This document shows positions 8,704-36,124 of a stretch of DNA of 41,656 nucleotides, piece after piece (within the stretch, counting starts at the first letter, position 1; every line of letters starts with the position of its first letter). The notes under the pieces were generated by a model. It was not told the DNA's origin and searched no databases. It saw only the letters and a program-made list of their open reading frames with translations. Made by a program: the position numbers and the translations under genes. The DNA lies in the NCBI GenBank assembly GCA_021399405.1, contig JAAFKL010000403.1, forward strand, positions 1-41,656. The letters run 5' to 3'. The DNA comes from Candidatus Heimdallarchaeota archaeon (GTDB lineage Archaea; Asgardarchaeota; Heimdallarchaeia; Heimdallarchaeales; Kariarchaeaceae).

Positions 8704-9672
8704 TTAGTTATTCTCAATAAATTGAATTAATAGTTCTGCAAGTTCAGAACCTTTGTCTTCTTGTAAAAAGTGACCAGCATTTTCTGTGGTATGATGATTT
8801 ATATCTGCCGCACCTGGAACACCCCTCTGGAATAATTTATGTCCGCCCCTGGTAATTGGGTCTTTATCACTGAATGCAGTCATAAATGGTTTATTCCATG
8901 TCTTAAATGTTGTATCCCATACTTTTTGATTTTTCCTTAATTGGGATGTAACTAACATTGGCATTACTCTGGGTCCAGCTTTATATGAATCATCTGGAAA
9001 AGGTGCATTGTATGCTTTTACCTCTTCCTCAGATAATTCAGTTACTGTTGCTCCTTGAATTATATCTCCAACACGAAAATCATCGATTGATTGTGAGTAT
9101 GCTACCCATGATTCAAATCCTGGATTTTCTGATAAATATTTCCCATCCACTTTTCCTAAACTTTTGATTTTTCGTTTGAATAATGTATGACCAAACCAAC
9201 CTTTCCATCCTTTAGCCTTTGTAAAACCAGTATTTGCAGCCATGATACGAGAGAAGAGTAATGGTAAATTATGGACAACCCGTAATCCTATCAATCCACC
9301 CCAATCTTGAATAAATAAACTGATATTTGTTAAATCTAATAATTTTACAAATTCAGTTACTACAGATACATGCAAATCATACGAATGGTCGTTCTGATTA
9401 GTAAGCTTATCCGATCTCCCGAAACCAATTAAATCGGGTGCAATAACTCTATACCCCTTTTCAACCAAAGTTGGTATCATTTTACGATATAAATAACTCC
9501 AAGATGGCTCTCCATGAAGAAGTAATATTACATTTCCACTAGGTGGCCCAGCATCAACATAATGAACTCTCAGTTCATTTATTGTTACGTAATTTGGTTT
9601 GTAAGAAAAATCAGATAAGTTATCGAATCTCTCATCTGGAGTTCTTAAAATAGAATATCCCACAGTAATCAT
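8704..9672 (-). CDS. Alpha/beta hydrolase, haloalkane-dehalogenase-like
   Basis: The 322-residue cytoplasmic alpha/beta hydrolase resembles haloalkane dehalogenases of subfamily I (DhlA/DhmA type), which cleave carbon-halogen bonds hydrolytically. The oxyanion region is LLHGEPSWSYLYR (51-63). The nucleophile elbow is QDWGG, giving Asp123 followed by Trp124, the aspartate plus halide-binding tryptophan pair of that family. The acid is probably Asp269 or Asp271 (FSDKDPIT), and the base is His301 (AGHFLQED). An Asp rather than Ser nucleophile excludes ordinary esterases; epoxide hydrolases share Asp but normally lack this Trp pattern. The natural substrate is uncertain. The ATG at 9672 has a TATA-like box 23 bases upstream, so the gene is probably transcribed apart from the PPTase gene before it. 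Confidence 0.85.
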   Translation of the reverse strand: MITVGYSILRTPDERFDNLSDFSYKPNYVTINELRVHYVDAGPPSGNVILLLHGEPSWSYLYRKMIPTLVEKGYRVIAPDLIGFGRSDKLTNQNDHSYDLHVSVVTEFVKLLDLTNISLFIQDWGGLIGLRVVHNLPLLFSRIMAANTGFTKAKGWKGWFGHTLFKRKIKSLGKVDGKYLSENPGFESWVAYSQSIDDFRVGDIIQGATVTELSEEEVKAYNAPFPDDSYKAGPRVMPMLVTSQLRKNQKVWDTTFKTWNKPFMTAFSDKDPITRGGHKLFQRGVPGAADINHHTTENAGHFLQEDKGSELAELLIQFIENN

Positions 9673-9745: not shown

Positions 9746-10372
9746 TCAGAAGGGAAATTTAGAAGAAATAGTTACAACGAAATTTGATCCAACATAACTT
9801 TCACAAATGCTTTTACCTTGTGGTGATACTACAATTGATGTAGATTTTTGATGGTTAAAATTCTGCAAATCACTTACAATAACTCCATGTAAATCGGTTC
9901 TCAACCCGATCCTCATTCGTTTAAGATGAGCTTCTTTCATGGTCCAAAGCATTGTTAGAAAATTATGATCAGCATTATGAAGGTCATATTTTTCGACTTC
10001 ACCTAATGAAAATGACTCATCAATGAAGGCAGGATGTCTTTTTGAAATTAACTCTAAATCAATTGTATTATCTTTCACAGTGGAAAGAGCCATCCCGTTA
10101 GAGTGGGATATAGAAACATGCGTCTTAATATTATTAACAAAAGCAAATGGACTGCGATTTTCATCTTTTAAGATTTCAATAGTATTGAAAGGAATTCCAA
10201 GCACATATGATAAAGAGAATTTTGCAGCAATACGTCCAGCAAGCCATTCATTTCTTTTCTTAGGAATTTTAAAATTATCAAATCTCTCTTTTTCCTTTGG
10301 TAAAAGAAGAGAATTTATGAAATTCTGAGTAACATTAGCTAGCGCATCAACTTCGATTGAAACAATTTTCAA
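9746..10372 (-). CDS. Sfp-type 4'-phosphopantetheinyl transferase
   Basis: This enzyme moves the phosphopantetheine arm from coenzyme A to carrier domains, turning apo-ACP into holo-ACP. The 208 residues carry the Sfp/AcpT motifs: KKRNEWLAGRIAAK (38-51), SISHSNGMAL (87-96), the magnesium-binding pair Asp105 and Glu107 (DLELI), and WTMKEAHLK (143-151) with Lys146 and Glu147. The canonical sequence around the first acidic residue is usually GID or GVD; here it is TID. It is the gene directly downstream of the giant synthase, 32 bases after its stop and on the same strand, so its partner is almost certainly that synthase. The start is TTG at 10372; no better in-frame start exists. Archaea without carrier-protein pathways do not need this enzyme, which strengthens the link. 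Confidence 0.9.
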   Translation of the reverse strand: MKIVSIEVDALANVTQNFINSLLLPKEKERFDNFKIPKKRNEWLAGRIAAKFSLSYVLGIPFNTIEILKDENRSPFAFVNNIKTHVSISHSNGMALSTVKDNTIDLELISKRHPAFIDESFSLGEVEKYDLHNADHNFLTMLWTMKEAHLKRMRIGLRTDLHGVIVSDLQNFNHQKSTSIVVSPQGKSICESYVGSNFVVTISSKFPF

Positions 10373-10384
10373 TTGATGTAACCC

Positions 10385-10405
10385 GCTGAGATATTTTACC
10401 TCAGC
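10385..10405 (-). other. Small hairpin between synthase and PPTase genes
   Basis: GCTGAG and CTCAGC arms (10385-10390 and 10400-10405) with a nine-base loop form a six-pair hairpin that touches the last base of the synthase stop codon and lies 12 bases before the PPTase start. No T-run follows, so I do not call it a terminator. It might affect translation of the second gene. Confidence 0.3.
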
Positions 10406-13400
10406 TAATTCACTTTTTTTTGGATCTTGACATCTAGTGTCTCCAGATCCCCAGTATGAATCATTTCATACTCTTCCATCTTAATCAAAACATTTCCATC
10501 TTCATCAACGATATCAACATCATAGTAAGAATACATATCATTAGTTCTCAAGTATTGTACGATTATATATTTGGGAGAATTACCTAAATGAAACACTGTC
10601 AATTGTTTTATCCCTGAAGGTAATCCCATTTGCTTTTGGGTAAGCATTAAGTGCAATCCAGCCGTTTGAAATCCGGCCTCTATTGCGAGTGGATCTATTT
10701 CCAATTCACTATCATCTGTAAACATAGTTTTCTTTGGTCGATTGAATGTTGATATTGCCGAAACCTCAGTAACCTCATTTAACTTTTTGATGACTTGATA
10801 GCTAGGGCCATGGAAGAATAATTTATAGATTTGTTTGGATGACATTACTGAAGCTATTTTTACCAATTCTAAGTTTGATTTATTTGTAGAAGGAAAACCT
10901 GGAGTTCTATTAGAATTAATTGTTATCATTTCAAAATGTTCTCTGAGATCACCTAATTGCTTTCCATCAGGACCTATGAATTTTGATTTTAAGTAATATT
11001 TAGATGTTTCATCTTCTCTTGAAATAATTAATTCCAGATCCTTGTCATGAGGTAGTTTGACTGGAGATTTAAATTTCACATCATGCAAATGAAATACTGT
11101 ATTGTCTTCTATTGCTCTTGACATTTCTGCAATAGTTTCTAATCCCATGACACCTGGTAAAACAGCTTTACCTTCAATTCGATGATCATCCAAATAACTA
11201 TCTCTTTCCAATGAAATAGTTCTATAAGCTTGAAGTTTCTTTTTATCTAGATTATCAATCATAACTGTGGGATGTTCTTTTCCCTTGTACCAATTTGTTT
11301 GATTTGTTAACGCGCCTAGTTCGCCTGAAATCACAACTTCAACTTCTTTACCATGTTCTATTTCTTGGATGGCTCTGTTGATCCCTTTATCTAGGGGTAT
11401 CGCAGTTAATCCGAGAGCTGATAGTATAGTCATTGCAGAACCACGTGTTGCCATACCCACATCAGCCCATGCAGACCAATCAATAGCAGTAGCATTAACT
11501 CCTTTATCAGATAATTCTCTACATCTTTTGGCTAAATATTCATTTGCAGCTGAATAATCTGCTTGTGTAGCATTACCAAATCGTCCAGCAATTGATGTAA
11601 ATAGAAGGACACGTTTCAGATTTCCAGGTTCCAAAAATTTGTATATGTTTTCAAATCCGTCAACTTTGACAGAGTATACCAATTCGAACTCTTTTTGAGA
11701 TTTGGAAATAGTTGGACGTGAAATCTCTAAACCCGCGCCATGAATAAAATGAGTAATTCCATTTATGTTTATTTGGTCATTCAATTTTTTCATTATGAGG
11801 TTAACTGCCTTTGTGGAGGCGATATCCACACTTTCATAGTAGACAGTTGCACCCAAATCTTGTAACTCTTTTTTATGTCTCCATACTTGAGCTGATTTGT
11901 AAATTACAGACCATTCTTTCTCGAGAACTACTGGTGTAACCTTCTTGCCTGCACTTTTCAAATCTTCTTTGAGTAGTTCTTTTCTTTCTCTCAGCTCGCT
12001 TTCAGAAAGATTTGCTATAATTTCCGCATCACTGCGAATATTAGTTCTACCAAGTAAAATAATTGTAGTACCTTTTGTTATGATATTTTTAATAATCTCA
12101 TAGGTAATTCCTTGAGCTCCACCTGTTGCTAGTAATATGTCAAACTTACTCAATTTCCAACTCGATTCTGGTAAATCTTCACTTTGTAATGCAACTTCCA
12201 GTCGATTGTTGTTGCGATAAATAACTTCAACACCATCAGTCAAGAGTTCTTTATTCAATTGAGTTTCTTTTTCATATAACACAATCTTTGCTTGGATTTG
12301 AGGAAACTCCTTTGAAATAGATTTGAATAAACCACCGATTGCCCCTTGAATTGGATTTAATTGATGGATCGGAGTAATTTCAGTCTTTTTGGATTTTACA
12401 GCAATAAATAAACCAGTTAGATTATCCAAATTAGATTTAATGACACTGTATAACTTCGAAATTGATCCAATTGACGTCTTGGTTGGATTAATTAGTAACA
12501 AACTCGAATTTGATTCTAACTTCTCGTTGGATTTCAGAACCGGAATTACATTCAATCCCAAGTTTTCTGCAAGACTATCTAATGCCTTGTTCTTACGAGA
12601 AACCATAATCCCATTCAGTTTACCATTGCTTGAACCTAATTTCTTTTTGTTATATCGGATTGTGTATCGATAGGTAGGAATTCCTGATTTTGGTATATCT
12701 ATATCCATAGAAGTGGATTCAGCAATGTCCCCTATATCTCCAGCGTTTTGAAAAATTAAATCAGATATTTTATGAATTGTGTTGTATTCTCCAAGCTCCA
12801 TGCTTTCAATTCTAGAAACTGAGAATTCTTCACGAGCCATTCCAAACAGCTCTGCCTGCTTCACTGTATCTATTCCAAGGTCTGCTTCCATATCTAACTC
12901 TGGATCAAGCATATCAATAGGGTAACCTGTTTTTTCCGCAATGATTTCTGTAATTCTTTGCAAAACTTGAGTTTCTGTAACTCCAGTTACTGTTTTTTGT
13001 GCTTGTGGTTTTACTTTCGCTTTGTCAACTTGCTTTGTTTTAGGAGATTGACTTTCCTTAAATAAATCAGAGATAAAATTAATCTCTGATATATTAGATA
13101 AATCAACACCAAGATTTAATTCATTGTTAATTTTATTAATAAGGTCTGCTAAAGCTTCTTCATCCTGTCCTAGATCATCACGAAATGAAACCATCTCATT
13201 AAGTAAAGATTCGGGATAGCCCGTATATTCAGCAATAATAGATTGAACTTTGTTTAAAAGATTGTCATCAACTGAAATTTGAGTTGGCATAGCTTGTTTT
13301 ACAGGCTTGGAAACTGGTTTTTGAATAGTCTTTTTGGTTACATCCGAGCTTGATTGAGGAGACGCCACACCACCAGATTGCGACATTACAAAATCAGCTA

Positions 13401-16400
13401 CAGCCGAAATTGTTGGATAATCGCTGATTTGAATATCTCCGAGTCTTTCAATTTGATATTGTTCTCTAACCATACCAAACAGCTCTGCTTGTTTCACAGT
13501 ATCGATTCCAAGGTCTGCTTCCATGTCCAACTCAGGATCAAGCATATCAACAGGGTATCCTGTTTTTTCAGCTATAACATCAAGAATTTCACTGAGGACC
13601 TTATCTCGATCTAAATCACTTTCAACTGTAGTAATAGAATCTTGCGACGGAGTAACTTTAGTTACAACTGAGTCAGTTCCTGATTCTTCTGTGAAATAGT
13701 CTGCGATGGCATTTATTGTTGGAAAGTCTGCAATTTGAACACCTTCCTCTCTTTCTAAATTATATTCTTCACGAAGCAAACCAAATATCTCAGCCTGCTT
13801 CACTGTATCTATTCCAAGGTCTGCTTCCATATCTAACTCAGGATCAAGTAGATCAACTGGATATCCAGTCTTTTCAGCAATTATTTCAATTATTTTATTT
13901 TTTACATTATCAGATGGTATTGACTTTCGTTCTGGCAATGGTTTTGAAACTGATTTAGGCTTAGTTTGTACTGGTGATGATACAATTCTTGGTTTTGGTT
14001 TGACGATTTTTTGAGGAGTTGGCTGCTTAACAATTTTAGATTGAAATTTAATACCTTCAATCCCTTTATCCTTTAATCTCAGTGTCTTACCGAGTTTGAT
14101 AAGATCAGTTCTTTTACCACCTAAAGTTTCTAACCAACCATCGTATTGTAAACCAAATCTATTTCCACTACTACGTTTTTTAAACAACGCTAAAGCAATT
14201 TGTGAACCAAATCCTGCAGCTAATCTTAAAGTGTAATTGACAGTAACATTTTCTCCCTGAGATAATCGAAGGGGTCCAAGCTCCTCATCTCCCTCTTTGA
14301 AATTTGCGATTGGAGGTATTTTTCCAACCTCCATGGATTTTATTGCAACTACATCTTCAATCCCCGCACCCATAGCGTGTCCAGTGAAACCTTTTGTGTT
14401 AGCAATTATTATGTTTGACACACCATCTCCAAATGTATCTCTAAGTGCTCGAATTTCAGCTCCAGCAGAGCCACCTCGTGCAGGGGTATATGTTTCATGG
14501 CTCATAAACATCATGGATTTAGCCATTTCATCTGCGGGTATTCCATGTGCTTGTTCCATTTGCTTGATAAAGTTTTGAACTGATTCACTAACATGATTAA
14601 TATCTAAACGTGTACCATGAAAACTACTATTAGCATAATATGCACCAAGAAGTTCCACTAATGGGGTAACACCTCTTCTCTGAGCTTCGGATTCAGTTTC
14701 TACGACTAAAGCCGCAGCACCCATACCGATTATTAATCCTTCTCTTCTCCTGTCAAATGGTAAAGCTGCTTCCTCAACATTCTTCTTGGTGGTTGCCGCT
14801 CCAGAGGCTAAGAATCCTGTTCCGACCCATGGTAATATTGTGTCGCTGGAAATATTATCTCCTGAAATGACAATAACTCTCTTACATCTACCCGATCTCA
14901 ACCAATCATTCGCCACTCCAAGTGCTTGGGTAGTTGATGCACATGCGGCATTAACATGAGTATTGGGTCCTCTTGCTCTAATTAATTGAGCAAACTGTGA
15001 ATGACCCATTGTTAAAATATTAAGGAGAAATTTACGATTGAAATGATAATCAAGATCATTTTTCTCCAACTCGGTTAATTCTTTCTCAATCTTATTTAGT
15101 AGGTAATTCTTCTCCTTATCATTAGATATTTTTCTTGTAATTTCTGAATATAACTCTGATAGTAGCCGTTTTGAATTATCAATGTATTTCTGATCATTGA
15201 AATTTTGTATTTCTTCAGATAATTTGTCTACACCTGGAAATGAAGAAGCAAATATTACACCAGTTTCATCTTGTAATTCTTCGGGAAGGACCCAAGGACC
15301 AGGCAAATAAGAACCAGTTGTTGTTTTCTTATAACTTCTAACTAGTGGTATTCCAGCATCTCGTAGAGCTAATAATCCTGCAGCAATTGCTAATTCCGTA
15401 GTTGTATCATAGGTATCTGCAATCCCATCTGCAATTTGGAATTCTTCGACAAGATCAAATTTACCCATTTGTCCTGCTAAATTTAGCACTTCGTCATAAC
15501 TGGTCGGGGAATGAAATACCGGTTCTGATCCACTCTTTTTGATTAATCTCACTATTTTTTTCTCAAACTGTGCTTCTAATTTTGATTGTGGAATCCTATC
15601 GATAAGATTTTCTCCATTTAGAATTCTATCGAAATTATTTTCATCAAACACTTCTTTATACAAACCAGGTAATCCGACCCCAATTCCAGTAATAACAATA
15701 TTTTCCAAATTTAAATTAAGTTTGTATACTTTAGTTGAATCTGATTTTAGATACTGAACTGTTTGCTCCATGAATTCTTTGAAAGCATGCGGATGTAAAT
15801 CATATGTGACTTGTTGTGCCTTACTTGTGGCCGACGTGAAAATTTGGGATGTAATCATAGCATCAGATCTAGAAACAAACTCAGATTGACAATCCCCTAG
15901 TTTACCGTTTTGTGGCCATCGATATTCAGGAACAAATATATTTGAATTTGCTCCAAATGATTTTAATGGTAATCCCACTGCACCAGCAGCCGCAATTGCT
16001 TCATTAAATGTCTGTATTCCTCCTTTCTTGGGATGATTACAAGATACAGTTAATGCATTCCTATCTCCAATTATATCGGCAACAAAACCAGATAATGCTT
16101 TCTTAGGTCCTACTTCAAAAAATATTGTTGCACCTTCATTGTGCATTGATTTAACTTGAGAAGTCCATTCAACAGCGGAGCCTACTTGTTTCTTTAATAA
16201 TTCTCTAATTTTCTCAGGATTCTTTGGGAAGAAACTACCACTAACATTGGACGTAATTGGTATTTTTGGTTTTTTGAACTTGATTGTCCCTAAATATTCA
16301 GACAGAGGTTCTGCTGCAGGGGCAACAATTTTTGTGTGAAATGCTGCAGACACGGATAATTGTATAGCTGACATACCTCGAGCTTCAAATTCTTTAATTG

Positions 16401-18810
16401 CTTCATTGATCCCTTCCGTAGATCCTGAGATAACAGTTTGTGATATGCTGTTTTTATTCGCTGCAATTACATATCCATTTAATTTTTTAAGAATATCCTC
16501 AACTTCTTTAATCGTCCCAGAAATCGAAGCCATTGTTCCCTTATCCTCAACATCTACTTCAGACATTGCTTTTCCCCTGATAGCTACAGCGATAAGTGCG
16601 TCTTTGAATGTAAGAACCTCAGCAGCTACTAAAGCAGCATATTCTCCAAGTGAATGACCTGCTACCATATCGGGCTTTATTCCGAATTTCTGTAATAATC
16701 TAAATAGTGCAATATCTACAGTTAGCATGGCAGGTTGGGTAATTTCAGTTTGTCGTAATCTTGTATCAACTTCTTTGCGATCACGCCCGAAGGTGAATAA
16801 ATAAGAGGATAATGGCTCATCTAAGTAATCTTCTAATATTTCATCTGCTTCTTCGATTGTTTGCCGAACAATCTTATATTTTAGCGATAGATCATATAAC
16901 ATATCTGCATATTGAGACCCCTGTCCTGGGAAGACAAAAGCTACCTTACCATCAGGTAATCCAACAGAAGTGAAAATACCTCGTGCGCGAGCTACACCTT
17001 GTCTACCTTGATCTTGTAATGCTCCACTTGCTAATTTACTATATTTATTCAATTCAGCAAGCTCAGGTAGTGCAATACCAAGTCTAAAATCATGTTTGGG
17101 ATTAAAATTTAGAGATTTTACCGCAGTTAACAATGGTTCACTGTTGGGATTAACGCTTATAGTTTCAATCGGGATCTTATTTGGTAAATTATCTAATTTT
17201 GTTAATAACTCATTTAACGATCTTGCTGACAAGAGAATAGCTTCTTTCTCCAAATTACGATTTCGCTGAGAATATTCATCCCAGGTTAAATGTCTATTTG
17301 TGTCATTATCACTGGTAGTTTTACTAATTTCAGGAAATTTAATGACTTCAGGTTTAGTGTAAATTCTACTAGAATCATATTCTTCCAAAATTACATGAAA
17401 ATTGGTTCCTCCAAAACCAAAGCTCGAAACTCCAGCCCTCCTAATCTTATCCTTTTCCATTTTCCATTCAGTAGCTTCTGTATTTACCACAAATGGACTC
17501 GAATCCCAATCAATATTTGGGTTTGGAGTCTCAAAATTGATGGATGGGGGCATAATTTTATGATGTAATCCTAAAATTGTTTTAACGATTGCTGCAGCAC
17601 CTGCAGCACTTTTTAGGTGACCAACTTGACTTTTGATAGAACCAATTTTTATTGAATGATTTGTAACTCCTGCCTCTTTGAAGACTTTAGCCAAAGTGTT
17701 AACCTCAACTCTGTCTCCTACTGGTGTAGATGTTCCATGTGCTTCAATTAATTGAATATCATTTGGTGTAATTCCTGTGTTTTCATATGCTCGTTGCACA
17801 GCTAATTCTTGTCCAATAGGATTGGGTGCAGTTATTCCCTTACCTTTACCATCTGAAGATGCACCTACTCCGATAATTAGGCCATATATATTATCATTAG
17901 CTTCAATGGCATCGGATAGCCGTTTAAGTATGAACATACCACTGCCTTCACCCATAACAAATCCATTGGCACGAGCGTCAAATGGGAATGACCCCTTCTC
18001 TGATAATGCACCTATTTTACTAAATTTGACATAAGTTGTAGCATCCATAGTACGATCTGAACCACCAACAACAGCAGCATCGTAATCATGTGCTAACAAA
18101 CCTTTGTAAGCAACTTCAATTGCAGCTAAAGATGATGCACAAGCTGCATCAGAAGTTATATTCATTCCACGAAGATTAAACACTGAAGCGATTCTCCCAG
18201 CAATAATATTTGGCAGCTCACCAGGCATAGAATCTTCGGTTATATTTTTTAAATCTACCTTGTATTCTTTTTCAACATTGGATAAGAATTCTTTTTGATC
18301 CTTTTTATTGAGTGATTTAAATTGATCTGTCTTTTTTATTGCATCTTCAAGGTGGGGAAATAATATTCGGCGATTGTATTCAGTTTTTAATTCGCCACCG
18401 CCAGAATTACCAATAATGACAGCACAGCTATCTCTCGGAAATGAATCTGAGTTGTACTTTGCATCTTCAAGAGCTTCTTTTGCGGCATAAAGAGCATATT
18501 GTTGAACTTTATCCATTTGGGTAGCGACAGTTGGTGGAATTCGATACTCGAATGATTTAAATTCAAAATTTTTTACAAAGGCTCCAATTTTTGTATATGT
18601 TTTATCTGGTGCTTCTCGATCCTCATCATAATAGAGTTTAGGATCCCATCTTTCTAATGGGACCTCATCGATTGAACTGTGTCCAGTAATAATATTTTGC
18701 CAGAATTCATCAATAGAGTTTGAATCCGGAAAAATCCCACCTAGACCAACCACGGCTATAGGTTCTTTTCCATATATTTTTGCTTGTTCGAGTTTTGGAG
18801 CTTTACTCAT
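10405..18810 (-). CDS. Giant type I polyketide/fatty-acid synthase, KS-AT-KS-ACP4-KR-DH
   Basis: A single 2801-residue multienzyme that builds an acyl chain. Domains in order: KS1 (about 15-475; Cys224 in DAACASSL, His358 in HGTSTPVGD, His398 in VGHLKSAAG); AT (about 622-930; Ser720 in GHSLGEY, malonyl-type AAFH ending at His825); KS2 (about 1030-1560; Cys1290 in NAACAST, His1438 in HETYTP, His1478 in TGHAMG); carrier domains centred on Thr1669, Thr1771, Glu1884 and Thr1982; KR (TGGAQG from 2229, Tyr2419 in ADYSAANEY); DH (His2543 in DDHRIEGKAVLPG, Asp2706 in EIDPLAIEAGFQ). No enoyl reductase, thioesterase or methyltransferase is seen. The layout recalls PUFA-synthase subunit PfaA and enediyne synthases, with an extra KS. 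The ATG at 18810 has AAAGGTGG just upstream. Three carrier domains have Thr where Ser normally carries phosphopantetheine. The PPTase gene follows. The product is unknown. Confidence 0.95.
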   Translation of the reverse strand: MSKAPKLEQAKIYGKEPIAVVGLGGIFPDSNSIDEFWQNIITGHSSIDEVPLERWDPKLYYDEDREAPDKTYTKIGAFVKNFEFKSFEYRIPPTVATQMDKVQQYALYAAKEALEDAKYNSDSFPRDSCAVIIGNSGGGELKTEYNRRILFPHLEDAIKKTDQFKSLNKKDQKEFLSNVEKEYKVDLKNITEDSMPGELPNIIAGRIASVFNLRGMNITSDAACASSLAAIEVAYKGLLAHDYDAAVVGGSDRTMDATTYVKFSKIGALSEKGSFPFDARANGFVMGEGSGMFILKRLSDAIEANDNIYGLIIGVGASSDGKGKGITAPNPIGQELAVQRAYENTGITPNDIQLIEAHGTSTPVGDRVEVNTLAKVFKEAGVTNHSIKIGSIKSQVGHLKSAAGAAAIVKTILGLHHKIMPPSINFETPNPNIDWDSSPFVVNTEATEWKMEKDKIRRAGVSSFGFGGTNFHVILEEYDSSRIYTKPEVIKFPEISKTTSDNDTNRHLTWDEYSQRNRNLEKEAILLSARSLNELLTKLDNLPNKIPIETISVNPNSEPLLTAVKSLNFNPKHDFRLGIALPELAELNKYSKLASGALQDQGRQGVARARGIFTSVGLPDGKVAFVFPGQGSQYADMLYDLSLKYKIVRQTIEEADEILEDYLDEPLSSYLFTFGRDRKEVDTRLRQTEITQPAMLTVDIALFRLLQKFGIKPDMVAGHSLGEYAALVAAEVLTFKDALIAVAIRGKAMSEVDVEDKGTMASISGTIKEVEDILKKLNGYVIAANKNSISQTVISGSTEGINEAIKEFEARGMSAIQLSVSAAFHTKIVAPAAEPLSEYLGTIKFKKPKIPITSNVSGSFFPKNPEKIRELLKKQVGSAVEWTSQVKSMHNEGATIFFEVGPKKALSGFVADIIGDRNALTVSCNHPKKGGIQTFNEAIAAAGAVGLPLKSFGANSNIFVPEYRWPQNGKLGDCQSEFVSRSDAMITSQIFTSATSKAQQVTYDLHPHAFKEFMEQTVQYLKSDSTKVYKLNLNLENIVITGIGVGLPGLYKEVFDENNFDRILNGENLIDRIPQSKLEAQFEKKIVRLIKKSGSEPVFHSPTSYDEVLNLAGQMGKFDLVEEFQIADGIADTYDTTTELAIAAGLLALRDAGIPLVRSYKKTTTGSYLPGPWVLPEELQDETGVIFASSFPGVDKLSEEIQNFNDQKYIDNSKRLLSELYSEITRKISNDKEKNYLLNKIEKELTELEKNDLDYHFNRKFLLNILTMGHSQFAQLIRARGPNTHVNAACASTTQALGVANDWLRSGRCKRVIVISGDNISSDTILPWVGTGFLASGAATTKKNVEEAALPFDRRREGLIIGMGAAALVVETESEAQRRGVTPLVELLGAYYANSSFHGTRLDINHVSESVQNFIKQMEQAHGIPADEMAKSMMFMSHETYTPARGGSAGAEIRALRDTFGDGVSNIIIANTKGFTGHAMGAGIEDVVAIKSMEVGKIPPIANFKEGDEELGPLRLSQGENVTVNYTLRLAAGFGSQIALALFKKRSSGNRFGLQYDGWLETLGGKRTDLIKLGKTLRLKDKGIEGIKFQSKIVKQPTPQKIVKPKPRIVSSPVQTKPKSVSKPLPERKSIPSDNVKNKIIEIIAEKTGYPVDLLDPELDMEADLGIDTVKQAEIFGLLREEYNLEREEGVQIADFPTINAIADYFTEESGTDSVVTKVTPSQDSITTVESDLDRDKVLSEILDVIAEKTGYPVDMLDPELDMEADLGIDTVKQAELFGMVREQYQIERLGDIQISDYPTISAVADFVMSQSGGVASPQSSSDVTKKTIQKPVSKPVKQAMPTQISVDDNLLNKVQSIIAEYTGYPESLLNEMVSFRDDLGQDEEALADLINKINNELNLGVDLSNISEINFISDLFKESQSPKTKQVDKAKVKPQAQKTVTGVTETQVLQRITEIIAEKTGYPIDMLDPELDMEADLGIDTVKQAELFGMAREEFSVSRIESMELGEYNTIHKISDLIFQNAGDIGDIAESTSMDIDIPKSGIPTYRYTIRYNKKKLGSSNGKLNGIMVSRKNKALDSLAENLGLNVIPVLKSNEKLESNSSLLLINPTKTSIGSISKLYSVIKSNLDNLTGLFIAVKSKKTEITPIHQLNPIQGAIGGLFKSISKEFPQIQAKIVLYEKETQLNKELLTDGVEVIYRNNNRLEVALQSEDLPESSWKLSKFDILLATGGAQGITYEIIKNIITKGTTIILLGRTNIRSDAEIIANLSESELRERKELLKEDLKSAGKKVTPVVLEKEWSVIYKSAQVWRHKKELQDLGATVYYESVDIASTKAVNLIMKKLNDQININGITHFIHGAGLEISRPTISKSQKEFELVYSVKVDGFENIYKFLEPGNLKRVLLFTSIAGRFGNATQADYSAANEYLAKRCRELSDKGVNATAIDWSAWADVGMATRGSAMTILSALGLTAIPLDKGINRAIQEIEHGKEVEVVISGELGALTNQTNWYKGKEHPTVMIDNLDKKKLQAYRTISLERDSYLDDHRIEGKAVLPGVMGLETIAEMSRAIEDNTVFHLHDVKFKSPVKLPHDKDLELIISREDETSKYYLKSKFIGPDGKQLGDLREHFEMITINSNRTPGFPSTNKSNLELVKIASVMSSKQIYKLFFHGPSYQVIKKLNEVTEVSAISTFNRPKKTMFTDDSELEIDPLAIEAGFQTAGLHLMLTQKQMGLPSGIKQLTVFHLGNSPKYIIVQYLRTNDMYSYYDVDIVDEDGNVLIKMEEYEMIHTGDLETLDVKIQKKVN
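12854..12900 (-). repeat. 47-base exact repeat inside the synthase gene (ACP4 copy)
   Basis: These 47 bases are identical to 13793-13839. They encode the carrier-domain core running from the Glu/Leu region before EADLGIDT through VKQA. The copy around 13490-13545 (ACP2) is similar but carries several synonymous differences. Identity at silent positions points to recent duplication or gene conversion. Confidence 0.85.
13793..13839 (-). repeat. 47-base exact repeat inside the synthase gene (ACP1 copy)
   Basis: This is the first copy of the carrier-domain core repeat, identical base for base with 12854-12900, about 940 bases away in the same gene and orientation. Confidence 0.85.
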
Positions 18811-24087: not shown

Positions 24088-24705
24088 GTGGATGATTTAG
24101 TTGATGACCTATTTGAGCTACACTTAAAGGTTTTAAGTCAGATATTAATAGGTACACCTTTTTCAGAAATTCGCAAAAATTACTCTGAAGATTTTAATAA
24201 ATTGGATTATGAAGACTTTATCACAAACAAAGCTCATAGATTGTCATTTGATAAGGATGGAAATCTTATTGGTGCATATCCAGTATCACCAATTCCAACC
24301 GATTTTAAGATCACAATTTCTGGTGTTTATCAAGGATATGCAATGTGTGCTCTTGACGCTTTAGGTATTGCATATACATTTATGGGTAAGACAGTGATTG
24401 AAACAAAAAATCAGTCAACAGGAAATCCAGTATCAATTACTGTTGATCCTTTAAGTGATAAGGTGATAAATGATGAATTAGTTATCACTTATCCAAATCA
24501 GGGGTATACTTCGTTAAAGCAATTGGTTGCTGAGAATACACAGCTATCCATAACTACATGCCCAAATATATTATTTTATTCAAAAAATAAGATACCAATT
24601 AACTCAAATTTATCTGTTCTTGATTTTGAAGATGCACTCGATGAAGCAATAGCGATATTCAGCCAAAAAGCAATGAAAGAACATTTCCAAAAATCAATGG
24701 AATAA
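24088..24705 (+). CDS. Alkylmercury lyase (MerB)-like protein
   Basis: The 205-residue protein resembles organomercurial lyase MerB, which breaks carbon-mercury bonds. The catalytic set appears conserved: Cys87 and Asp90 in YAMCALDALG match MerB Cys96 and Asp99 (WCALDTL), and Cys158 in TTCPNILFYS matches MerB Cys159. The stretch TGNPVSITV is like MerB TGAPVSLTV. The N-terminal roughly 75 residues look like a helical or winged-helix region, as in MerB. No merA, merR or mercury-transport gene is nearby, so true mercury detoxification is not shown by context. MerB-fold proteins with other roles exist. GTG start with a TATA-like element at 24051-24060. It precedes accC by 92 bases but probably has its own promoter. 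Confidence 0.75.
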   Translation: MDDLVDDLFELHLKVLSQILIGTPFSEIRKNYSEDFNKLDYEDFITNKAHRLSFDKDGNLIGAYPVSPIPTDFKITISGVYQGYAMCALDALGIAYTFMGKTVIETKNQSTGNPVSITVDPLSDKVINDELVITYPNQGYTSLKQLVAENTQLSITTCPNILFYSKNKIPINSNLSVLDFEDALDEAIAIFSQKAMKEHFQKSME

Positions 24706-24797: not shown

Positions 24798-26279
24798 ATG
24801 GATCGTCTCCTTATAGCAAATCGAGGAGAAATCGCTGTTCGTATCATTCGAGCAGCAAAAATGCTTGAGATGGATACTATATCCGTATATTCAGAACAAG
24901 ATAAACATTCTATGCATACAAGAATTTCTGATAAAGCCATTTCACTAGGTTATGGTCCTGCAATAGAAAATTATCTTAATGAAAACAAGATAATTAGAGT
25001 TGCTCTTGATGCTGAAGTTGATGCAATCCATCCAGGATATGGATTCTTATCTGAATCCGGTCATTTTGCGGAAATGGTAATTAATGCAGGTATGACATGG
25101 ATAGGACCCCCACCCGAAGCAATTTACAAATTGGGGAATAAAATTCAATCTAGAACAGAGGCAATAAAGGCAGGAATTCCAACAACTCCTGGATCAGAAG
25201 GATCAGTTGAACCAGTTAAAGAATCTTTAAGCATCGCACGTGATATTGGATATCCAATTATGGTAAAAGCCACGCATGGAGGTGGAGGACTGGGTATGGA
25301 AGTTGTCAAATCTCAAGATGAACTTCTCGCTGCGATTGAACGAACCAAAAAACAAGCACTATCTTATTTTGGTAATGGAGATATATTTCTAGAAAAATTT
25401 GTTGAGAAACCCAAACATATTGAAATTCAATTCATGGCAGATAGCAGGGGAAATGTAGTTCATCTTGGAGAAAGAGAATGCTCAATTCAAAGAAGACATC
25501 AAAAACTGATAGAAGAAGCCCCATCACCTGCAATAAGTGATGAAGAAAGAGAAACTATTGGTAAATCTGTTAAAAAATTAGCGAAATTAGTAGGATATGA
25601 AAATGCGGGCACAGTAGAATTTCTGTATAAGGATGGTGAATTCTATTTTAACGAGGTAAATGCTAGATTACAAGTTGAACATCCAGTAACAGAAATGGTC
25701 ACAGGTAAGGATCTGGTAATAGAGCAACTAAGAATAGGAATGGGAAAAAAACTATCATGGCGTCAAAAAGATATTGAAATAAATGGACACGCCATCGAAT
25801 TACGCATTAACGCTGAGGATCCAATTATGAACTTTCATCCATCACCTGGTAGAGTAAAGACACTCATAATCCCAGGAGGTTTTGGTGTAAGATTTGATAC
25901 TCATATCTATGAAAATTATACCGTACCAAATGATTACGATTCTCTTCTTGGTAAATTAGTAATTTGGGGAGAAAACCGGCAACAAGCGATATCTAGGGCA
26001 TACTATGCAAACTCAGAATTAGCAATCAATGGATTTCCAACCAATTCATCATTTCATAGGGTTGTTTTAGCAAATCCAGAATTCCATAAAGGCAACACAT
26101 CAACACATTTCATTGACGATAACAAAATCATTCCATACATACAAGAAGCGTTCAACAGAAGATTAGCAGCTCTATTTGCTTCAGGAATAAAAACCTCCAA
26201 AGTATTCCTACCAGATAGATCGGCAAATTCACAATGGAAAAATTCAGGTAGGTTAGAAACTTCAGGGAGGTTAAATTGA
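24798..26279 (+). CDS. accC: Biotin carboxylase subunit of acyl-CoA carboxylase
   Basis: This is the ATP-grasp enzyme that carboxylates biotin with bicarbonate and ATP, the first half-reaction of acetyl- or propionyl-CoA carboxylase. The 493 residues run from the N-terminal LIANRGEIAVRIIRA, through the glycine-rich lid (KATHGGGGLGM) and the active-site segment FNEVNARLQVEHPVTEMVTG, to the C-terminal RINAEDP region. Length is slightly above bacterial AccC (about 450) because of a roughly 40-residue tail. The gene meets the biotin-carrier gene with a TGATG stop/start overlap and a strong AGGGAGGT ribosome site, showing an operon. In archaea this subunit serves propionyl/acetyl-CoA carboxylases; pairing with the carboxyltransferase at 31934 is inferred. 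Confidence 0.96.
   Translation: MDRLLIANRGEIAVRIIRAAKMLEMDTISVYSEQDKHSMHTRISDKAISLGYGPAIENYLNENKIIRVALDAEVDAIHPGYGFLSESGHFAEMVINAGMTWIGPPPEAIYKLGNKIQSRTEAIKAGIPTTPGSEGSVEPVKESLSIARDIGYPIMVKATHGGGGLGMEVVKSQDELLAAIERTKKQALSYFGNGDIFLEKFVEKPKHIEIQFMADSRGNVVHLGERECSIQRRHQKLIEEAPSPAISDEERETIGKSVKKLAKLVGYENAGTVEFLYKDGEFYFNEVNARLQVEHPVTEMVTGKDLVIEQLRIGMGKKLSWRQKDIEINGHAIELRINAEDPIMNFHPSPGRVKTLIIPGGFGVRFDTHIYENYTVPNDYDSLLGKLVIWGENRQQAISRAYYANSELAINGFPTNSSFHRVVLANPEFHKGNTSTHFIDDNKIIPYIQEAFNRRLAALFASGIKTSKVFLPDRSANSQWKNSGRLETSGRLN
26264..26271 (+). promoter_or_regulatory. Shine-Dalgarno site for the biotin carrier gene
   Basis: AGGGAGGT, seven bases before the ATG at 26279. It decides in favour of that ATG over the in-frame TTG at 26276, and shows that internal operon genes here use Shine-Dalgarno initiation. 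Confidence 0.75.
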
Positions 26280-26875
26280 TGGTAAGTGACGAGAGTGAAC
26301 CAAAATTATCAGTTACACCTTTGAAACAAGCGTCTAAATTTCAAAAAACTCAAGATGAAAAACCACCGGTAGAAATTGATGATCAAAAATTCAAACCGTT
26401 TGATGTTACGTTTAACGGGAGAGAGATTTTGCTGTTTTATAATAATGCCACAGGTGAAATTATTATTGATGGCAAGCTCTATACGACCAAAGTAGAAGAA
26501 TTGGGAAGAATTGTAAAAACGCAAGTTGAAAAGGATCATACATATACAATCGAATATCATGAAGGACAAATATTCCTTGAAGGTAGATTAATAGATTTTG
26601 ATTTTCATGAATCTATTCCTAAGCTGAAAAGACAAAAATCAATATCAAGTAGTAAGGAATTGATAGTAGCTCCACTGCCAGGACAGGTGATTGGTATTTC
26701 AGTCAAAGCCGGAGATAAAGTCAGTCATGGTGATAAAATAGTCACATTAGAAGCAATGAAAATGCAAAATGATATTCTTTGTCAAGCAAGTGGATTAATA
26801 ATTGATGTTTTTGTTAAAGAGGGAGATCAAGTTAGTACTAGTCAGAAATTAGTTTTAATCAAAACCGATGAGTAA
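26279..26875 (+). CDS. accB: Biotin carboxyl carrier protein
   Basis: This subunit carries the biotin that shuttles carboxyl groups between biotin carboxylase and carboxyltransferase. With the ATG at 26279 it has 198 residues. The C-terminal 75 residues form the biotinyl domain, with APLPGQV at its start and the biotin attachment motif EAMKM (Lys161). The N-terminal 120 residues are charged at first, then a beta-rich segment (FNGREILLFYNN onward) resembles the linking domain found before the biotinyl domain in propionyl-CoA carboxylase alpha subunits. So this looks like the C-terminal half of a PCC alpha chain encoded separately. The ATG overlaps the accC stop by one base. No biotin ligase gene is in the window. 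Confidence 0.93.
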   Translation: MVSDESEPKLSVTPLKQASKFQKTQDEKPPVEIDDQKFKPFDVTFNGREILLFYNNATGEIIIDGKLYTTKVEELGRIVKTQVEKDHTYTIEYHEGQIFLEGRLIDFDFHESIPKLKRQKSISSSKELIVAPLPGQVIGISVKAGDKVSHGDKIVTLEAMKMQNDILCQASGLIIDVFVKEGDQVSTSQKLVLIKTDE

Positions 26876-31933: not shown

Positions 31934-33550
31934 ATGGGTAAATCAAAGAAAGAAGCAAAGTTATCAGGTTCTAAACTCAAGCATGATCATGAATTGAAAG
32001 AGACTACAGAAGAAAAGATTGATCATTACAAAGTTAGAAAGCAAATGGCAATGCAAGGCGGTGGAGCCAAAAGAATACAAGTTCAACATGATAAAGGGAA
32101 GTTTACTGCTAGAGAGAGGTTAGCCAGATTATTAGATCCAGGAACATTCGTAGAAACCGGGATGTTCATTTCTCATAAATCTGTTGGCCTTATGCGAAAC
32201 AAACCTCCAATTGATGGTGATGGTGTTGTTACTGGATATGGACGGATTAGTGATCGTTTAGTTTATGTTTTTTCTCAAGATTTTACCATTATGGGTGGTT
32301 CTTTGGGTCATGCGCATGCAAATAAAATTACAGATATTTACGATCAAGCCTTAAAGAATGGAGCACCTGTAATTGGATTTAATGATTCTGGAGGGGCGAG
32401 AATTCAAGAGGGAGTTGATTCACTTGCAGGTTATGGAGAGATCTTTTTCAAAAATGTGAATGCGTCTGGAGTAATACCACAAATATCAGTAATTATGGGA
32501 CCAAGTGCAGGTGGAGCTGTTTATTCACCGGCATTAACAGATTTTATCATAATGGTTGAAGATACAGCACATATGTTCGTGACAGGCCCTGAGATTGTTA
32601 AGACAGTTATGGGTGAAACAGCTACTTTTGATGAGCTAGGTGGTTCATCAACTCATGCTTTCAAGTCTGGTGTTGCACACTTTACACGTGTTGACGAATT
32701 TGAAGCCATTAAACTTGTTCGAGAGCTGATAGGATATTTCCCTTCTAACAACCTAGAAGATCCACCTGCATTGATAGCAAGTGATGACAAGGCGAGAATA
32801 TCCCTTAATCTGAATACAATAATCCCTGATGATTCCAAAGAAGCATATGATATGTATGAGATAATTAATGAGGTCATTGACCATGGTGAATTTTGTGAAA
32901 CCTCTGAACACTGGGCAAAAAATATCATTGTAGGCTTTGGACGAATGAATGGAATTACTGTTGGTATTGTGGCAAACCAACCCAAAGTACTTGCTGGTTC
33001 ATTGGACATTGATGCAAGTATCAAAGGTGCCAAGTTTATTAGATTCTGTGATGCTTTCAATATTCCGATAATCACTTTTGTAGATGTCCCTGGTTTCCTT
33101 CCTGGGCTTGCACAAGAACACGGTGGTATTATTCGAAACGGAGCTAAGCTACTGTATGCTTATTGTGAAGCTACAGTGCCAAAAATAGCAATAGTTGTCA
33201 GAAAAGCTTTTGGTGGTGCTTATATTGTTATGTCCTCAAAACACCTAGGTACAGATGTTAATTTTGCATGGCCAACCGCAGAAATTGCAGTTATGGGAGC
33301 AGAAGGTGCAGTCAAGATATTGTATCGTAGAGAATTGCAAAAGACTGATGAACCCGAAAACCTTAGTAAAGAATTGCAAAATGATTACAAAAAAGAATTT
33401 TATTCACCATTCACAGCAGCAAAACTGGGTCACATTGATGAGATAATTATGCCATCTGATACTAGACCGAGAATTATTGAAGCCCTCTGGCCCTTATTAA
33501 CCAAACGTGAAACAAGAATGAAAAGGAAACATGGCAATATGCCACTCTAA
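31934..33550 (+). CDS. pccB: Acyl-CoA carboxylase carboxyltransferase (propionyl/acetyl-CoA carboxylase beta chain)
   Basis: This subunit moves the carboxyl group from biotin to an acyl-CoA, giving malonyl-CoA or methylmalonyl-CoA. The 538 residues form the usual pair of crotonase-like domains. The N domain has [16 protein letters not shown] and the oxyanion segment [10 protein letters not shown]; the C domain has VDVPGFLPG and [15 protein letters not shown]. The residue after GGAY is Ile431. In Streptomyces enzymes, as I recall, Asp there goes with propionyl-CoA preference and Ile with acceptance of acetyl-CoA, so acetyl-CoA use is plausible. The lysine-rich first 40 residues are longer than in most relatives. 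ATG start. The partners are presumably the biotin carboxylase and carrier 5 kb upstream. Methylmalonyl-CoA decarboxylase alpha is the close alternative, but no decarboxylase membrane subunits are present. Confidence 0.93.
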
Positions 33551-33681: not shown

Positions 33682-35022
33682 TTGAGTGATCATCATATTT
33701 CTTATTTACCTACAGATGGATTAAGTTATGATCCAACCGAAGAAATATATTGGGACAAAGACGCATTTAAAAAAGAGTTACTTAGAGCATATGAACTCTG
33801 TCATGAGTGCAGAATGTGTTTCAAATATTGTAATTCATTCCCAATTTTATTCACTAAAGTCGATGAAAACGATGGTGATGTACGCAAGGTAACAGATGAA
33901 GATACGGTTGAGATAATGAATGCTTGTTTTCAATGCAAACTTTGTGAGGTTCAATGTCCTTACACGCCAAAAGAAGATCATGAGTTTAAACTTGATTTCC
34001 CAAAACTTGTTCACAGGTATAATGCAATTAGAGCTAGGGATAATGGGAATACTTTCAGAGATAAATTTTTTTCAAACCCTGATAGGATTGCCAAAATTTC
34101 ACGTGCGTCATTGGGAATAGCTAATTTTGCAAATTCAGTTCATATTTTCAGAGTAATCAATGAAAAAATACTAGGTATACACAGAGATAAAATACTCCCT
34201 AAATTTCCATTGCAAACGTTTGATAAGTGGGCCGCAAATCAAGGTTTAATCTCTGATGAGAAATCAGAATTGACTCTTTTTCAAACATGCTATGTCCAGA
34301 ATAATGAACCTGATATTGGCAAAGATACTATAAAGGTATTAGAGAAAAATCAGATTAAAACAACTTGCTCGAAAGGGCTGAATTGTTGTGGAATGCCTTC
34401 TTGGGAAATAGGAGACATTGAAACAGTTAGAAAAAATGCAAAACACAATTTGGATATATTAATACCCAAGATAGAAGCTGGTGCAAAGGTGGGAGTTATT
34501 AACCCAACATGTTCAATGATGATGCGAAATGAGTACCCAGAACTCCTCGAAGGTGAGGATCGTGAGAGAGCCAAAATATTATCTGATGCAATTACTGATG
34601 TTTCAGAATACGTATGGTCCATACGTAATGAAGATCGCTTCAATATCGACTTTAAATCTACTCCAGATGGCGATGTCGCATATCATGTCCCTTGTCATCT
34701 ACGAGCTCAAAGAATTGGTTTTCCTTCCCGAGGATTAATGAAAAAAGTTACAGGTGTGAAGGTATTACTAAATATGGAATGCAGTGGTCATGATGGCACT
34801 TATGCAATGAAGAAAGAATCATTTGATGATTCTTTGCGAATTGGAAAGAAATCATTTGATGGTATGCAAAAAGATACTGTTAAGGCAATGGTATCAGATT
34901 GTCCACTTGCTTGTACGCAATTTGAACAGGGTTTAGGTACCAAAGCACTTCATCCTATGAGTTTTCTTGCAAAAGCCTACCGAGAAGATGGGTTTGAAAA
35001 CAAAATTACTAAGGAGAAATAG
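33682..35022 (+). CDS. Fe-S protein with two CCG domains (GlpC/HdrD-like)
   Basis: This 446-residue electron carrier combines two [4Fe-4S] clusters with cysteine-rich CCG domains. The clusters are bound by Cys40/43/46/50 (CHECRMCFKYC) and Cys82/85/88/92 (CFQCKLCEVQC). The later cysteine sets are CYVQ...LNCCGMPSWE...PTCSMM and PCHLRA...ECSGHDGTY...DCPLAC. In both CCG units part of the canonical CC/CxxC pattern is altered (CSGH replaces CCG, CSMM replaces CxxC). The protein resembles heterodisulfide reductase subunit D and anaerobic glycerol-3-phosphate dehydrogenase subunit C. It is followed two bases later by a DUF3501 gene with a Shine-Dalgarno site. That pair next to rubrerythrin is a recurring bacterial arrangement, suggesting electron supply for peroxide reduction. 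The start is TTG, the least certain part. Confidence 0.9.
   Translation: MSDHHISYLPTDGLSYDPTEEIYWDKDAFKKELLRAYELCHECRMCFKYCNSFPILFTKVDENDGDVRKVTDEDTVEIMNACFQCKLCEVQCPYTPKEDHEFKLDFPKLVHRYNAIRARDNGNTFRDKFFSNPDRIAKISRASLGIANFANSVHIFRVINEKILGIHRDKILPKFPLQTFDKWAANQGLISDEKSELTLFQTCYVQNNEPDIGKDTIKVLEKNQIKTTCSKGLNCCGMPSWEIGDIETVRKNAKHNLDILIPKIEAGAKVGVINPTCSMMMRNEYPELLEGEDRERAKILSDAITDVSEYVWSIRNEDRFNIDFKSTPDGDVAYHVPCHLRAQRIGFPSRGLMKKVTGVKVLLNMECSGHDGTYAMKKESFDDSLRIGKKSFDGMQKDTVKAMVSDCPLACTQFEQGLGTKALHPMSFLAKAYREDGFENKITKEK
35011..35016 (+). promoter_or_regulatory. Shine-Dalgarno site for the DUF3501 gene
   Basis: AAGGAG, eight bases before the ATG at 35025 and inside the end of the upstream Fe-S gene. 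It fixes the start and shows translational coupling. Confidence 0.7.
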
Positions 35023-35024
35023 AA

Positions 35025-35585: not shown

Positions 35586-35654
35586 ATTTAAATCAAATAA
35601 TATAAATTCTTGAACTTTAAGACCATCTCTTTGATAGATAAATTGTAGATTCTA

Positions 35655-35680
35655 ATTATTTTATTTTTTACTATTTTATA
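35655..35680 (+). terminator. T-rich terminator after the Fe-S/DUF3501 operon
   Basis: A stretch dominated by T on the plus strand (ATTATTTTATTTTTTACTAT and following) lies 70-95 bases after the DUF3501 stop, just before the convergent rubrerythrin stop. Archaeal RNA polymerase stops at such U-tracts without a hairpin. Confidence 0.4.
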
Positions 35681-35688
35681 ATCGATTA

Positions 35689-36108: not shown

Positions 36109-36124
36109 AAGAAATAATAAGGTA

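What the first reader, a model, noticed from the sequence alone, without database searches (positions are those of the whole stretch)
10405..18810. A 2801-residue iterative-type synthase in an archaeal genome
The sequence shows one unbroken gene with KS, AT, a second KS, four carrier-like domains, KR and DH, with catalytic residues visible in each catalytic domain. Archaeal core lipids are isoprenoid and large type I synthases are rare in archaea. Neighbours such as cdc48 and the archaeal-class tyrS argue that this is real archaeal DNA rather than contamination. The layout is closest, from memory, to PfaA and to bacterial synthases with KS-(Thr-type ACP)n-KR. With its PPTase it could make a polyene, a PUFA-like chain or a hydroxylated lipid new to archaea.
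Basis: partly seen in the sequence, partly recalled or inferred. Interest (0 to 1): 0.93.

Follow-up and report, generated by a model that had tools for sequence, protein, structure and literature searches.

The report
Asgard archaeal one-chain fatty acid synthase
This piece of archaeal DNA encodes a giant multi-domain enzyme that likely builds saturated fatty acids from malonyl-CoA; close relatives of it occur in 43 of 58 genomes searched from one class of Asgard archaea, the group nearest to eukaryotes, whose membranes are not supposed to need fatty acids.

Summary
The gene is real (minus strand, 10405-18810, 2801 aa): KS-AT-KS-ACP×4-KR-DH, with catalytic residues present in every enzymatic domain. 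Three ACPs carry Thr at the cofactor site; one ACP is degenerate. The frame ends in an A8 run just before a separate PPTase ORF; relatives have the PPTase fused, so this was probably one ~3,000-aa protein.

It is archaeal: 43 of 58 genomes of a Heimdallarchaeota class carry it, against 2 of 169 other Asgard genomes; two copies lie on single multi-megabase contigs. The Asgard copies in the trees and the window form one supported clade.

The architecture matches the uncharacterised bacterial "Type R secondary lipid synthase" (Shulse & Allen 2011). The Asgard context points to fatty acid synthesis: acyl-CoA carboxylase genes adjoin it, 29 of 43 genomes show a fused enoyl reductase, and the 7 that lack one are exactly the 7 of 58 genomes with a FabI. 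A saturated product is therefore likelier than the polyene or PUFA first proposed. LipB occurs in 30 of 45 synthase-bearing and 4 of 182 other Asgard genomes, suggesting octanoyl supply for lipoate.

No activity, product or Thr-pantetheinylation is shown. The window contains no FabI, and its genome is not held.

The parts
10405..18810 (-). Megasynthase ORF, 2801 aa: KS1-AT-KS2-ACP1-ACP2-ACP3(degenerate)-ACP4-KR-DH
17371..18765 (-). KS1 (aa 16-480), C224, H358, H398
16021..16950 (-). AT (aa 621-930), S720, R745, H825; AAFH at the extender-specificity position, read as malonyl by a recalled rule
14131..15711 (-). KS2 (aa 1034-1560), FabF-like with C1290, H1438, H1478 kept
13678..13917 (-). ACP1, Thr1669 at the cofactor site
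13369..13611 (-). ACP2, Thr1771 at the cofactor site; predicted ACP fold with this Thr at the start of helix 2
13057..13269 (-). ACP3, degenerate (Glu1884 where the others have Thr)
12742..12978 (-). ACP4, Thr1982 at the cofactor site
11296..12153 (-). KR (aa 2220-2505)
10441..11250 (-). DH double hotdog (aa 2521-2790), HxxxGxxxxP, E2711
10414..10421 (-). A8 homopolymer just before the synthase stop; likely place of a frame break between synthase and PPTase
9746..10372 (-). 4'-phosphopantetheinyl transferase (ORF as listed from TTG; frame open from 10465); motifs VSISH, IDLE and W-x-x-KEA
24798..26279 (+). Biotin carboxylase (accC), 61.5-64.8% identical to the accC beside the synthase in three ER-less relatives (G001, G003, G039)
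26276..26875 (+). Biotin carboxyl carrier protein
31934..33550 (+). Carboxyltransferase subunit of an acyl-CoA carboxylase, 67-74% identical to genes near the synthase in five ER-less relatives
8704..9672 (-). Alpha/beta hydrolase directly downstream of the PPTase ORF; QDWGG (Asp) nucleophile of the haloalkane-dehalogenase type, so probably not the releasing thioesterase; membership of the system doubtful

Best explanation
The window encodes an archaeal (Asgard, Heimdallarchaeota-related) iterative type I synthase that likely makes saturated fatty acyl chains de novo, as an ACP-bound fatty acid synthase rather than a polyene or PUFA synthase. Shown by sequence: a KS-AT-KS-ACP-KR-DH polypeptide with complete active sites, a PPTase right behind it, and acyl-CoA carboxylase genes nearby; in relatives these lie side by side, with an enoyl reductase fused or as FabI. 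Inferred mechanism: the biotin carboxylase, BCCP and carboxyltransferase make malonyl-CoA; the PPTase loads 4'-phosphopantetheine onto Thr (in place of Ser) of ACP1, ACP2 and ACP4; AT loads malonyl; KS1 and/or KS2 condense; KR reduces, DH dehydrates, and a trans-acting FabI, expected elsewhere in this genome, would reduce the enoyl group each cycle. A FabH-like enzyme may start the chain in this subtype. Part of the output would be drawn off at C8 by LipB for lipoate; the rest would be released as longer chains by an unidentified enzyme.
For: Architecture and active sites. FabI hits at E<=1e-25 in 7 of 58 class genomes, exactly the 7 whose synthase start is seen without a fused ER; 0 of 29 with a fused ER, 0 of 7 with the start not seen, 0 of 15 without the synthase (Fisher 3.3e-9 for 7/7 vs 0/51 and 1.2e-7 for 7/7 vs 0/29, neither corrected for kinship). 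A FabH-like gene in 6 of 58, all in that set. Carboxyltransferase gene directly upstream on the same strand in 29 of 32 genomes whose flank was surveyed and whose synthase start is seen. Copies on contigs of 3,326,783 bases (G010) and 4,361,485 bases (G089), the latter with biotin ligase, carboxyltransferase, synthase, hydrolase, BCCP and accC in one run. The Asgard rows plus the window form one clade at 99* in FastTree (164 rows) and IQ-TREE (49 rows). LipB in 30 of 45 synthase-bearing vs 4 of 182 other Asgard genomes; in the ER-less genomes TIGR00517 found ACPs only inside synthase frames.
Against: No FabI or FabH-like gene and no Ser-type hydrolase of the relatives' kind was found in the window, and its genome is not held. 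The window's carboxylase genes lie 6-15 kb away on the other strand. The seven ER-less genomes are one clade, so the ER/FabI exchange may be a single event. P0049, a Heimdallarchaeota-labelled protein inside the ER-fused clade, shows no ER in its 230 aa before KS1 (perhaps a late start call). Thr for Ser: a spinach ACP Ser38Thr mutant lost function, as told in the background of PMC9310384. PlsC-family acyltransferases do not track the synthase: 24 of 58 genomes, including all 15 without it and only 2 of the 29 with a fused ER. LipB is absent from 13 of 43 class genomes with the synthase and from G089/G090. The carboxyltransferase's best model is a methylmalonyl-CoA decarboxylase subunit, under its cut-off, so its substrate is open. 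TIGR00517 also missed synthase ACPs in several genomes, so it is not sensitive.
Confidence: 0.64

Rival explanations
1. A secondary-lipid or PUFA/polyene-type synthase: without a fused enoyl reductase it makes a partly reduced (hydroxylated, polyene or polyunsaturated) specialised lipid.
For: No ER domain in the protein and none found in the window; PfaA is the best NCBIfam model at 989.7 bits; bacterial kin have the layout of the uncharacterised Type R secondary lipid synthases.
Against: Exact complementarity of fused ER and FabI in relatives; score below PfaA's cut-off of 1010.1; no PfaB/PfaC-like partner found in the window; retention in 43 of 58 class genomes beside carboxylase genes fits a core role better.
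Confidence: 0.17
2. A short-chain supplier only: the synthase makes octanoyl-ACP for LipB-dependent lipoylation, as the mitochondrial type II system does (recalled), and no bulk fatty acids.
For: LipB in 30 of 45 synthase-bearing vs 4 of 182 other Asgard genomes, including all 7 ER-less genomes and G038; no stand-alone ACP found in the ER-less genomes; [quoted passage not shown]
Against: 13 of 43 class genomes with the synthase, and G089/G090, lack LipB; the two traits share one clade, so kinship alone may link them; a dedicated carboxylase and a second KS look oversized for a cofactor.
Confidence: 0.14
3. Bacterial DNA wrongly joined to an archaeal contig.
For: Most of the 80 named loci are bacterial, and gyrA/gyrB-like genes sit at the right end.
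Against: The window falls inside the Asgard clade; cdc48 at the left end is 82% (over 175 aa) and gyrA at the right end 65% identical to genes of G036, an ER-less synthase genome, and cdc48 lies beside the synthase 3' end there too; GC stays between 0.30 and 0.40 along the window; homologues on a 3.33 Mb and a 4.36 Mb contig.
Confidence: 0.02

Closest known systems
Type R secondary lipid synthase (Shulse & Allen 2011, PMC3098273; passages read)
   Same: KS-MAT-(second KS, called CLF there)-ACP(3-6)-KR with a PPTase gene downstream; an acetyl-CoA carboxylase gene beside it in Koribacter; product unknown.
   Different: Reported there from Acidobacteria, Elusimicrobia and Chloroflexi ('archaea' and 'threonine' occur 0 times in that text). 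Asgard copies fuse the PPTase and often an ER, stand beside carboxylase genes, and the second KS keeps its Cys.
PfaA of PUFA synthases (TIGR02813)
   Same: KS-MAT-ACPn-KR order and best full-length model.
   Different: Below the model's cut-off; extra internal KS; Thr ACPs; no PfaB/C/D found in the window.
Enediyne PKSE (recalled)
   Same: One-chain KS-AT-ACP-KR-DH-PPTase order.
   Different: PKSE has one ACP and no second KS (recalled).
Archaeal fatty acid synthase complex (Schmerling et al. 2024, bioRxiv 10.1101/2024.07.05.601840; not read, known only from a passage of PMC11948995)
   Same: De novo fatty acid synthesis in archaea, with a new pathway identified in Thermoprotei and Asgardarchaeota.
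   Different: To my recollection dissociated and ACP-independent; here one ACP-bearing polypeptide with its own PPTase.
Animal type I fatty acid synthase (recalled)
   Same: One polypeptide carrying a full elongation cycle.
   Different: Different domain order, one KS, Ser ACP, another ER type (recalled); the fused Asgard ER is of the NMO family.

Membership tests
Type R secondary lipid synthase | KS-MAT-KS/CLF-ACP(3-6)-KR on one chain | tested here: met
   definition
Type R secondary lipid synthase | PPTase encoded directly downstream | tested here: met
Type R secondary lipid synthase | PPTase with P1b' motif hShxH | tested here: met
   VSISH read in the translation of 9746-10372; motif
Type R secondary lipid synthase | KS groups with the five named Type R members | tested here: inconclusive
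   Named members were not fetched; Elusimicrobiota, Chloroflexota and Acidobacteriota loci of like architecture are in the trees
Type R secondary lipid synthase | Middle domain is a chain-length factor, taken as Cys-less (the Cys loss is my recalled definition of a CLF, not a criterion stated) | tested here: not met
   Cys kept in all 191 distinct KS2 copies counted (103 database hits, 69 bacterial, 16 Asgard, 2 Thermoplasmatota, the window) and in 16 more Asgard copies with a shortened KS2
PfaA (TIGR02813) | Score over the curated cut-off 1010.1 | tested here: not met
   989.7 bits
PfaA (TIGR02813) | Partners PfaB, PfaC, PfaD | tested here: inconclusive
   None among the window ORFs scanned; genome not held
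Type I fatty acid synthase | Full cycle including enoyl reduction | tested here: inconclusive
   Fused ER in 29 and FabI in 7 of 43 related genomes; none seen in the window
Type I fatty acid synthase | Saturated fatty acid product | not testable with these tools
   needs biochemistry
Enediyne PKSE | Single KS and single ACP (recalled) | tested here: not met
   two KS, four ACP-like domains

The most novel reading that the evidence does not exclude
Heimdallarchaeota-class archaea, among the nearest kin of eukaryotes, make bacterial-type saturated fatty acids de novo with a self-activating one-chain synthase whose carrier domains hold phosphopantetheine on threonine, feeding both lipoate and acyl lipids: an ACP-based fatty acid pathway already present on the archaeal side of the lipid divide before eukaryotes arose.
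Probability: 0.3. Interest if true: 0.95.

Novelty: new variant of a known kind. Interest (0 to 1): 0.84.

Why it matters
Archaea are held not to need long-chain fatty acids for their membranes (PMC11948995 passage) and generally to lack ACP (PMC10332631 passage). [quoted passage not shown] A type I synthase clustered with carboxylase genes in most genomes of an Asgard class gives one named gene set on which that question can be tested by expression and labelling. It also offers an acyl donor for the puzzling archaeal LipB, and a protein family in which the usual Ser of carrier domains is Thr in the great majority of copies counted here.

Tried and rejected
Chimera/contamination was tested and rejected. 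A link to PlsC-type glycerolipid acylation was looked for and not found: PF01553 in 24 of 58 genomes, present in all 15 without the synthase. The downstream alpha/beta hydrolase of the window was first taken for the releasing thioesterase; its Asp nucleophile (QDWGG) and haloalkane-dehalogenase model argue against this, and it has no relative in the fetched loci. The hydrolase directly downstream of the synthase in 18 class genomes (15 with a fused ER, 3 with the start unseen) is another family; its copy in L123 reads GESFGG. I first treated synthase and PPTase as two genes; the frame analysis made a single broken ORF likelier, but only about ten residues of linker could be compared, by eye, and an error and a real fission cannot be told apart without reads. 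LipB supply as the sole explanation was set aside because 13 of 43 class genomes with the synthase lack LipB. Paper searches for Thr carrier proteins found one paper, which tells of the spinach mutant. Searches for the Asgard synthase in print (open-licence PMC papers only, no preprints) listed no paper whose title, abstract start or passages seen describe it; several lists were cut (25 of 1,098; 20 of 73; 25 of 112), and I looked into passages of nine papers only, none whole.

Rows dropped: P0001 (the window's own protein), P0061-P0120, loci L001, L002, L004, L006, L007, L014 and L082-L100 (repeats of other loci) and proteins without all of KS1, AT and KS2 were left out (164 rows kept); G089 and G090 were fetched later and are in no tree; one search used 49 rows chosen by me. 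double-counted some rows (P0001, L014/L154, database hits equal to loci, stand-alone KS2 and DH genes); one search repeats the count without these and is the one reported; one search adds KS2 copies that one search's length filter had dropped. In one search seven of the 43 synthase genomes were not surveyed (G015, G023, G032, G036, G037, G059, G060).
Full report
Observation. The ORF at 10405-18810 lies on the minus strand and encodes 2801 aa without a stop. Pfam and family HMMs made here read it as KS1-AT-KS2-ACP1-ACP2-ACP3-ACP4-KR-DH. The catalytic residues checked are present, and they hold across the distinct copies aligned: KS1 C/H/H in 219 of 219, AT S/R/H in 215 of 215, KS2 C/H/H/K in 191 of 191, KR K/S/Y in 185 of 185 (Asn 179, Ser 6), DH Glu in 184 of 184 and DH His in 183 (one gap). 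One search adds 16 of 16 Asgard copies with a shortened KS2.

Carrier domains. Three of the four ACPs read DLGIDTVK; the third has Glu at that place. Among the domains counted the residue was Thr in 84 and Ser in 7 of 96 Asgard domains, Thr in 200 of 211 bacterial and 8 of 9 Thermoplasmatota domains, and Thr in 436 and Ser in 15 of 465 from the other database hits; the rest were other letters or not readable by the pattern. Ser and Thr occur side by side in one chain (L111 reads S-T-S) and some Asgard copies show Ser only (L149, L141, P0002). That exchange, the alignment of this Thr with the Ser of solved ACPs (three alignments shown), and an AlphaFold model (mean pLDDT 89) that puts it at the start of helix 2 make Thr the likely cofactor site. 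It is not shown.

The PPTase. In the 43 class genomes with the synthase, the PPTase is fused in all 34 whose end is seen; 8 ends are not seen and 1 (G059) is cut by a contig end. In the window it is a separate ORF. The synthase stop follows an A8 run at 10414-10421, the only run of eight or more A or T in the ORF and one of three in the window. The other frame is open from there into the PPTase, and the roughly ten residues before the listed TTG start look, by eye, like the linker of G036's fused protein. The simplest reading is one protein of about 3,000 aa with a frame break in the homopolymer, by error or in nature.

Whose gene is it. The closest named database hits are Kariarchaeaceae and Heimdallarchaeota proteins, followed by Thermoplasmatota and several bacterial groups; 4844 of 7986 scored candidates passed E 0.001, of which 120 are listed. 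In the class of a Candidatus Heimdallarchaeota genome (G003, the genome of L004), 44 of 58 genomes match at 1e-30, one of them only weakly (G040, 421-aa frame), so 43 carry it. In the phylum it is 45 of 227 at 1e-80, i.e. 43 of 58 in the class and 2 of 169 outside. Fourteen of the 15 class genomes without it stand together in the listing (G040-G053). Two copies lie on contigs of 3,326,783 and 4,361,485 bases. It is also in 9 of the 12 genomes held for the class of G006, the genome of a Thermoplasmatales-labelled locus. In trees of KS1-AT-KS2 the Asgard rows and the window are one clade (99*; 30 Asgard rows, the window and 28 database hits, 16 Asgard rows, the window and 3 hits), split into an ER-fused clade (99*) and an ER-less clade with the window (100*). 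Three rows marked ER-less inside the ER-fused clade (L119, L122, L136) are cut by contig ends. The root is not fixed, so the direction of transfer is open. Both ends of the window match ER-less Asgard genomes: cdc48 82% over 175 aa and gyrA 65% to G036.

Gene neighbourhood. In relatives the synthase stands with acyl-CoA carboxylase genes. I surveyed the flanks in 36 of the 43 class genomes. The carboxyltransferase was found in 32, accC in 28 and BCCP in 25 of these 36, besides the window; several flanks are cut by contig ends. Of the 32 surveyed genomes whose synthase start is seen, 29 have the carboxyltransferase directly upstream on the same strand (frames overlapping, or within 131 bp), one at 415 bp (G008), and two farther (G035, G002). 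A biotin ligase (17 loci) and another alpha/beta hydrolase directly behind the synthase (18 class genomes; also G089 and G090) stand in the ER-fused subtypes. The window keeps accC, BCCP and carboxyltransferase 6-15 kb upstream on the other strand.

Enoyl reduction. The ER-fused copies begin with an NMO-family domain (for P0083). Of 43 genomes, 29 have it, 7 do not, and 7 have the start unseen. A search with the FabI found next to ER-less synthases (L102) hit 7 of 58 genomes at 1e-25, the weakest at 1.8e-114, and these are the same 7. FabI is adjacent in G001, G003 and G039 and on other contigs in G002, G035, G036 and G037. The FabI identity rests on NCBIfam (best 244 bits; under the cut-off of each model shown) and on solved enoyl-ACP reductases at 1.8e-58 and below. 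A FabH-like gene, weakly matched to KAS III models, occurs in 6 of the 7 and in no other of the 58 at 1e-20. So absence of the fused reductase goes with presence of a free one, which is most simply read as full reduction of the chains. All seven are one clade, so this may be a single event; the Fisher values do not correct for that. One database protein in the ER-fused clade, P0049, shows no ER before its KS1.

What the product is for. LipB occurs at 1e-20 in 34 of 227 Asgard genomes: 30 of 45 with the synthase and 4 of 182 without (p 4.8e-22 uncorrected). Within the class it is 30 of 43 against 3 of 15 (p 0.0018). TIGR00517 found ACPs only inside synthase frames in the ER-less genomes, though weak stand-alone ACP-like ORFs occur in many ER-fused ones and in G034 (0 of 58 genomes over the cut-off, and the search missed synthase ACPs in several genomes). 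So in the window's clade the synthase's own ACPs are the only ones detected for LipB. PlsC-family genes do not follow the synthase, so a membrane-lipid role is not supported by that test. Chain length and release are unknown.

Comparison. The layout is that of Type R secondary lipid synthases (passages). The second KS, labelled CLF there, keeps its Cys in every copy counted and its best match among solved structures is a FabF at 9.8e-25, so it is probably an active ketosynthase. PfaA's curated cut-off is missed. De novo fatty acid synthesis in archaea by another route has been reported in a preprint that I could not read, so 'archaea make fatty acids' is not itself new; the ACP-bearing one-chain synthase is the difference.

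Limits. No biochemistry; genomes of untold completeness, many fragmented; the window's own genome is not held; absence calls rest on search sensitivity; the names of the G genomes are not told, and 'Heimdallarchaeota class' rests on the title of L004's record.

Noticed in passing
L139:7455-8951, L145:6839-8482, L146:6469-8079, L150:4571-6226: Stand-alone KS2-like genes (499-552 aa) elsewhere in genomes that also hold the synthase (G001, G008, G036, G009); the G009 and G036 matches showed stops inside.
   Followed up: no
L147:8321-9787, L148:7984-9342: Stand-alone genes with a DH-like double hotdog (489 and 453 aa) in ER-fused genomes G005 and G004.
   Followed up: no
P0027, P0028, P0035, P0057: Relatives with Thr-type ACP motifs near the N-terminus as well as in the usual place.
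   Followed up: no
P0009, P0036, P0045: Proteins labelled Methanobacteriota, Bathyarchaeia and Zixibacteria that fall inside the Asgard clade; perhaps mislabelled MAGs.
   Followed up: no
G034, G052, G053, G086: Asgard genomes with LipB but no synthase found; G034 also has a weak stand-alone ACP.
   Followed up: no
window 24088-24705: MerB-like (alkylmercury lyase) protein directly before accC.
   Followed up: no
window 38614-41653: DNA gyrase A gene and the end of a gyrase B gene; gyrA is 65% identical to that of G036.
   Followed up: partly
window 33682-38551: CCG/4Fe-4S protein, DUF3501, rubrerythrin, acyl-CoA dehydrogenase and TetR-family regulator behind the carboxyltransferase; the last two might belong to acyl-CoA metabolism.
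   Followed up: no
window 8704-9672: Haloalkane-dehalogenase-like hydrolase (NCBIfam NF002043 at 372 bits, over its cut-off of 265) behind the PPTase; no similar gene in the fetched loci.
   Followed up: partly
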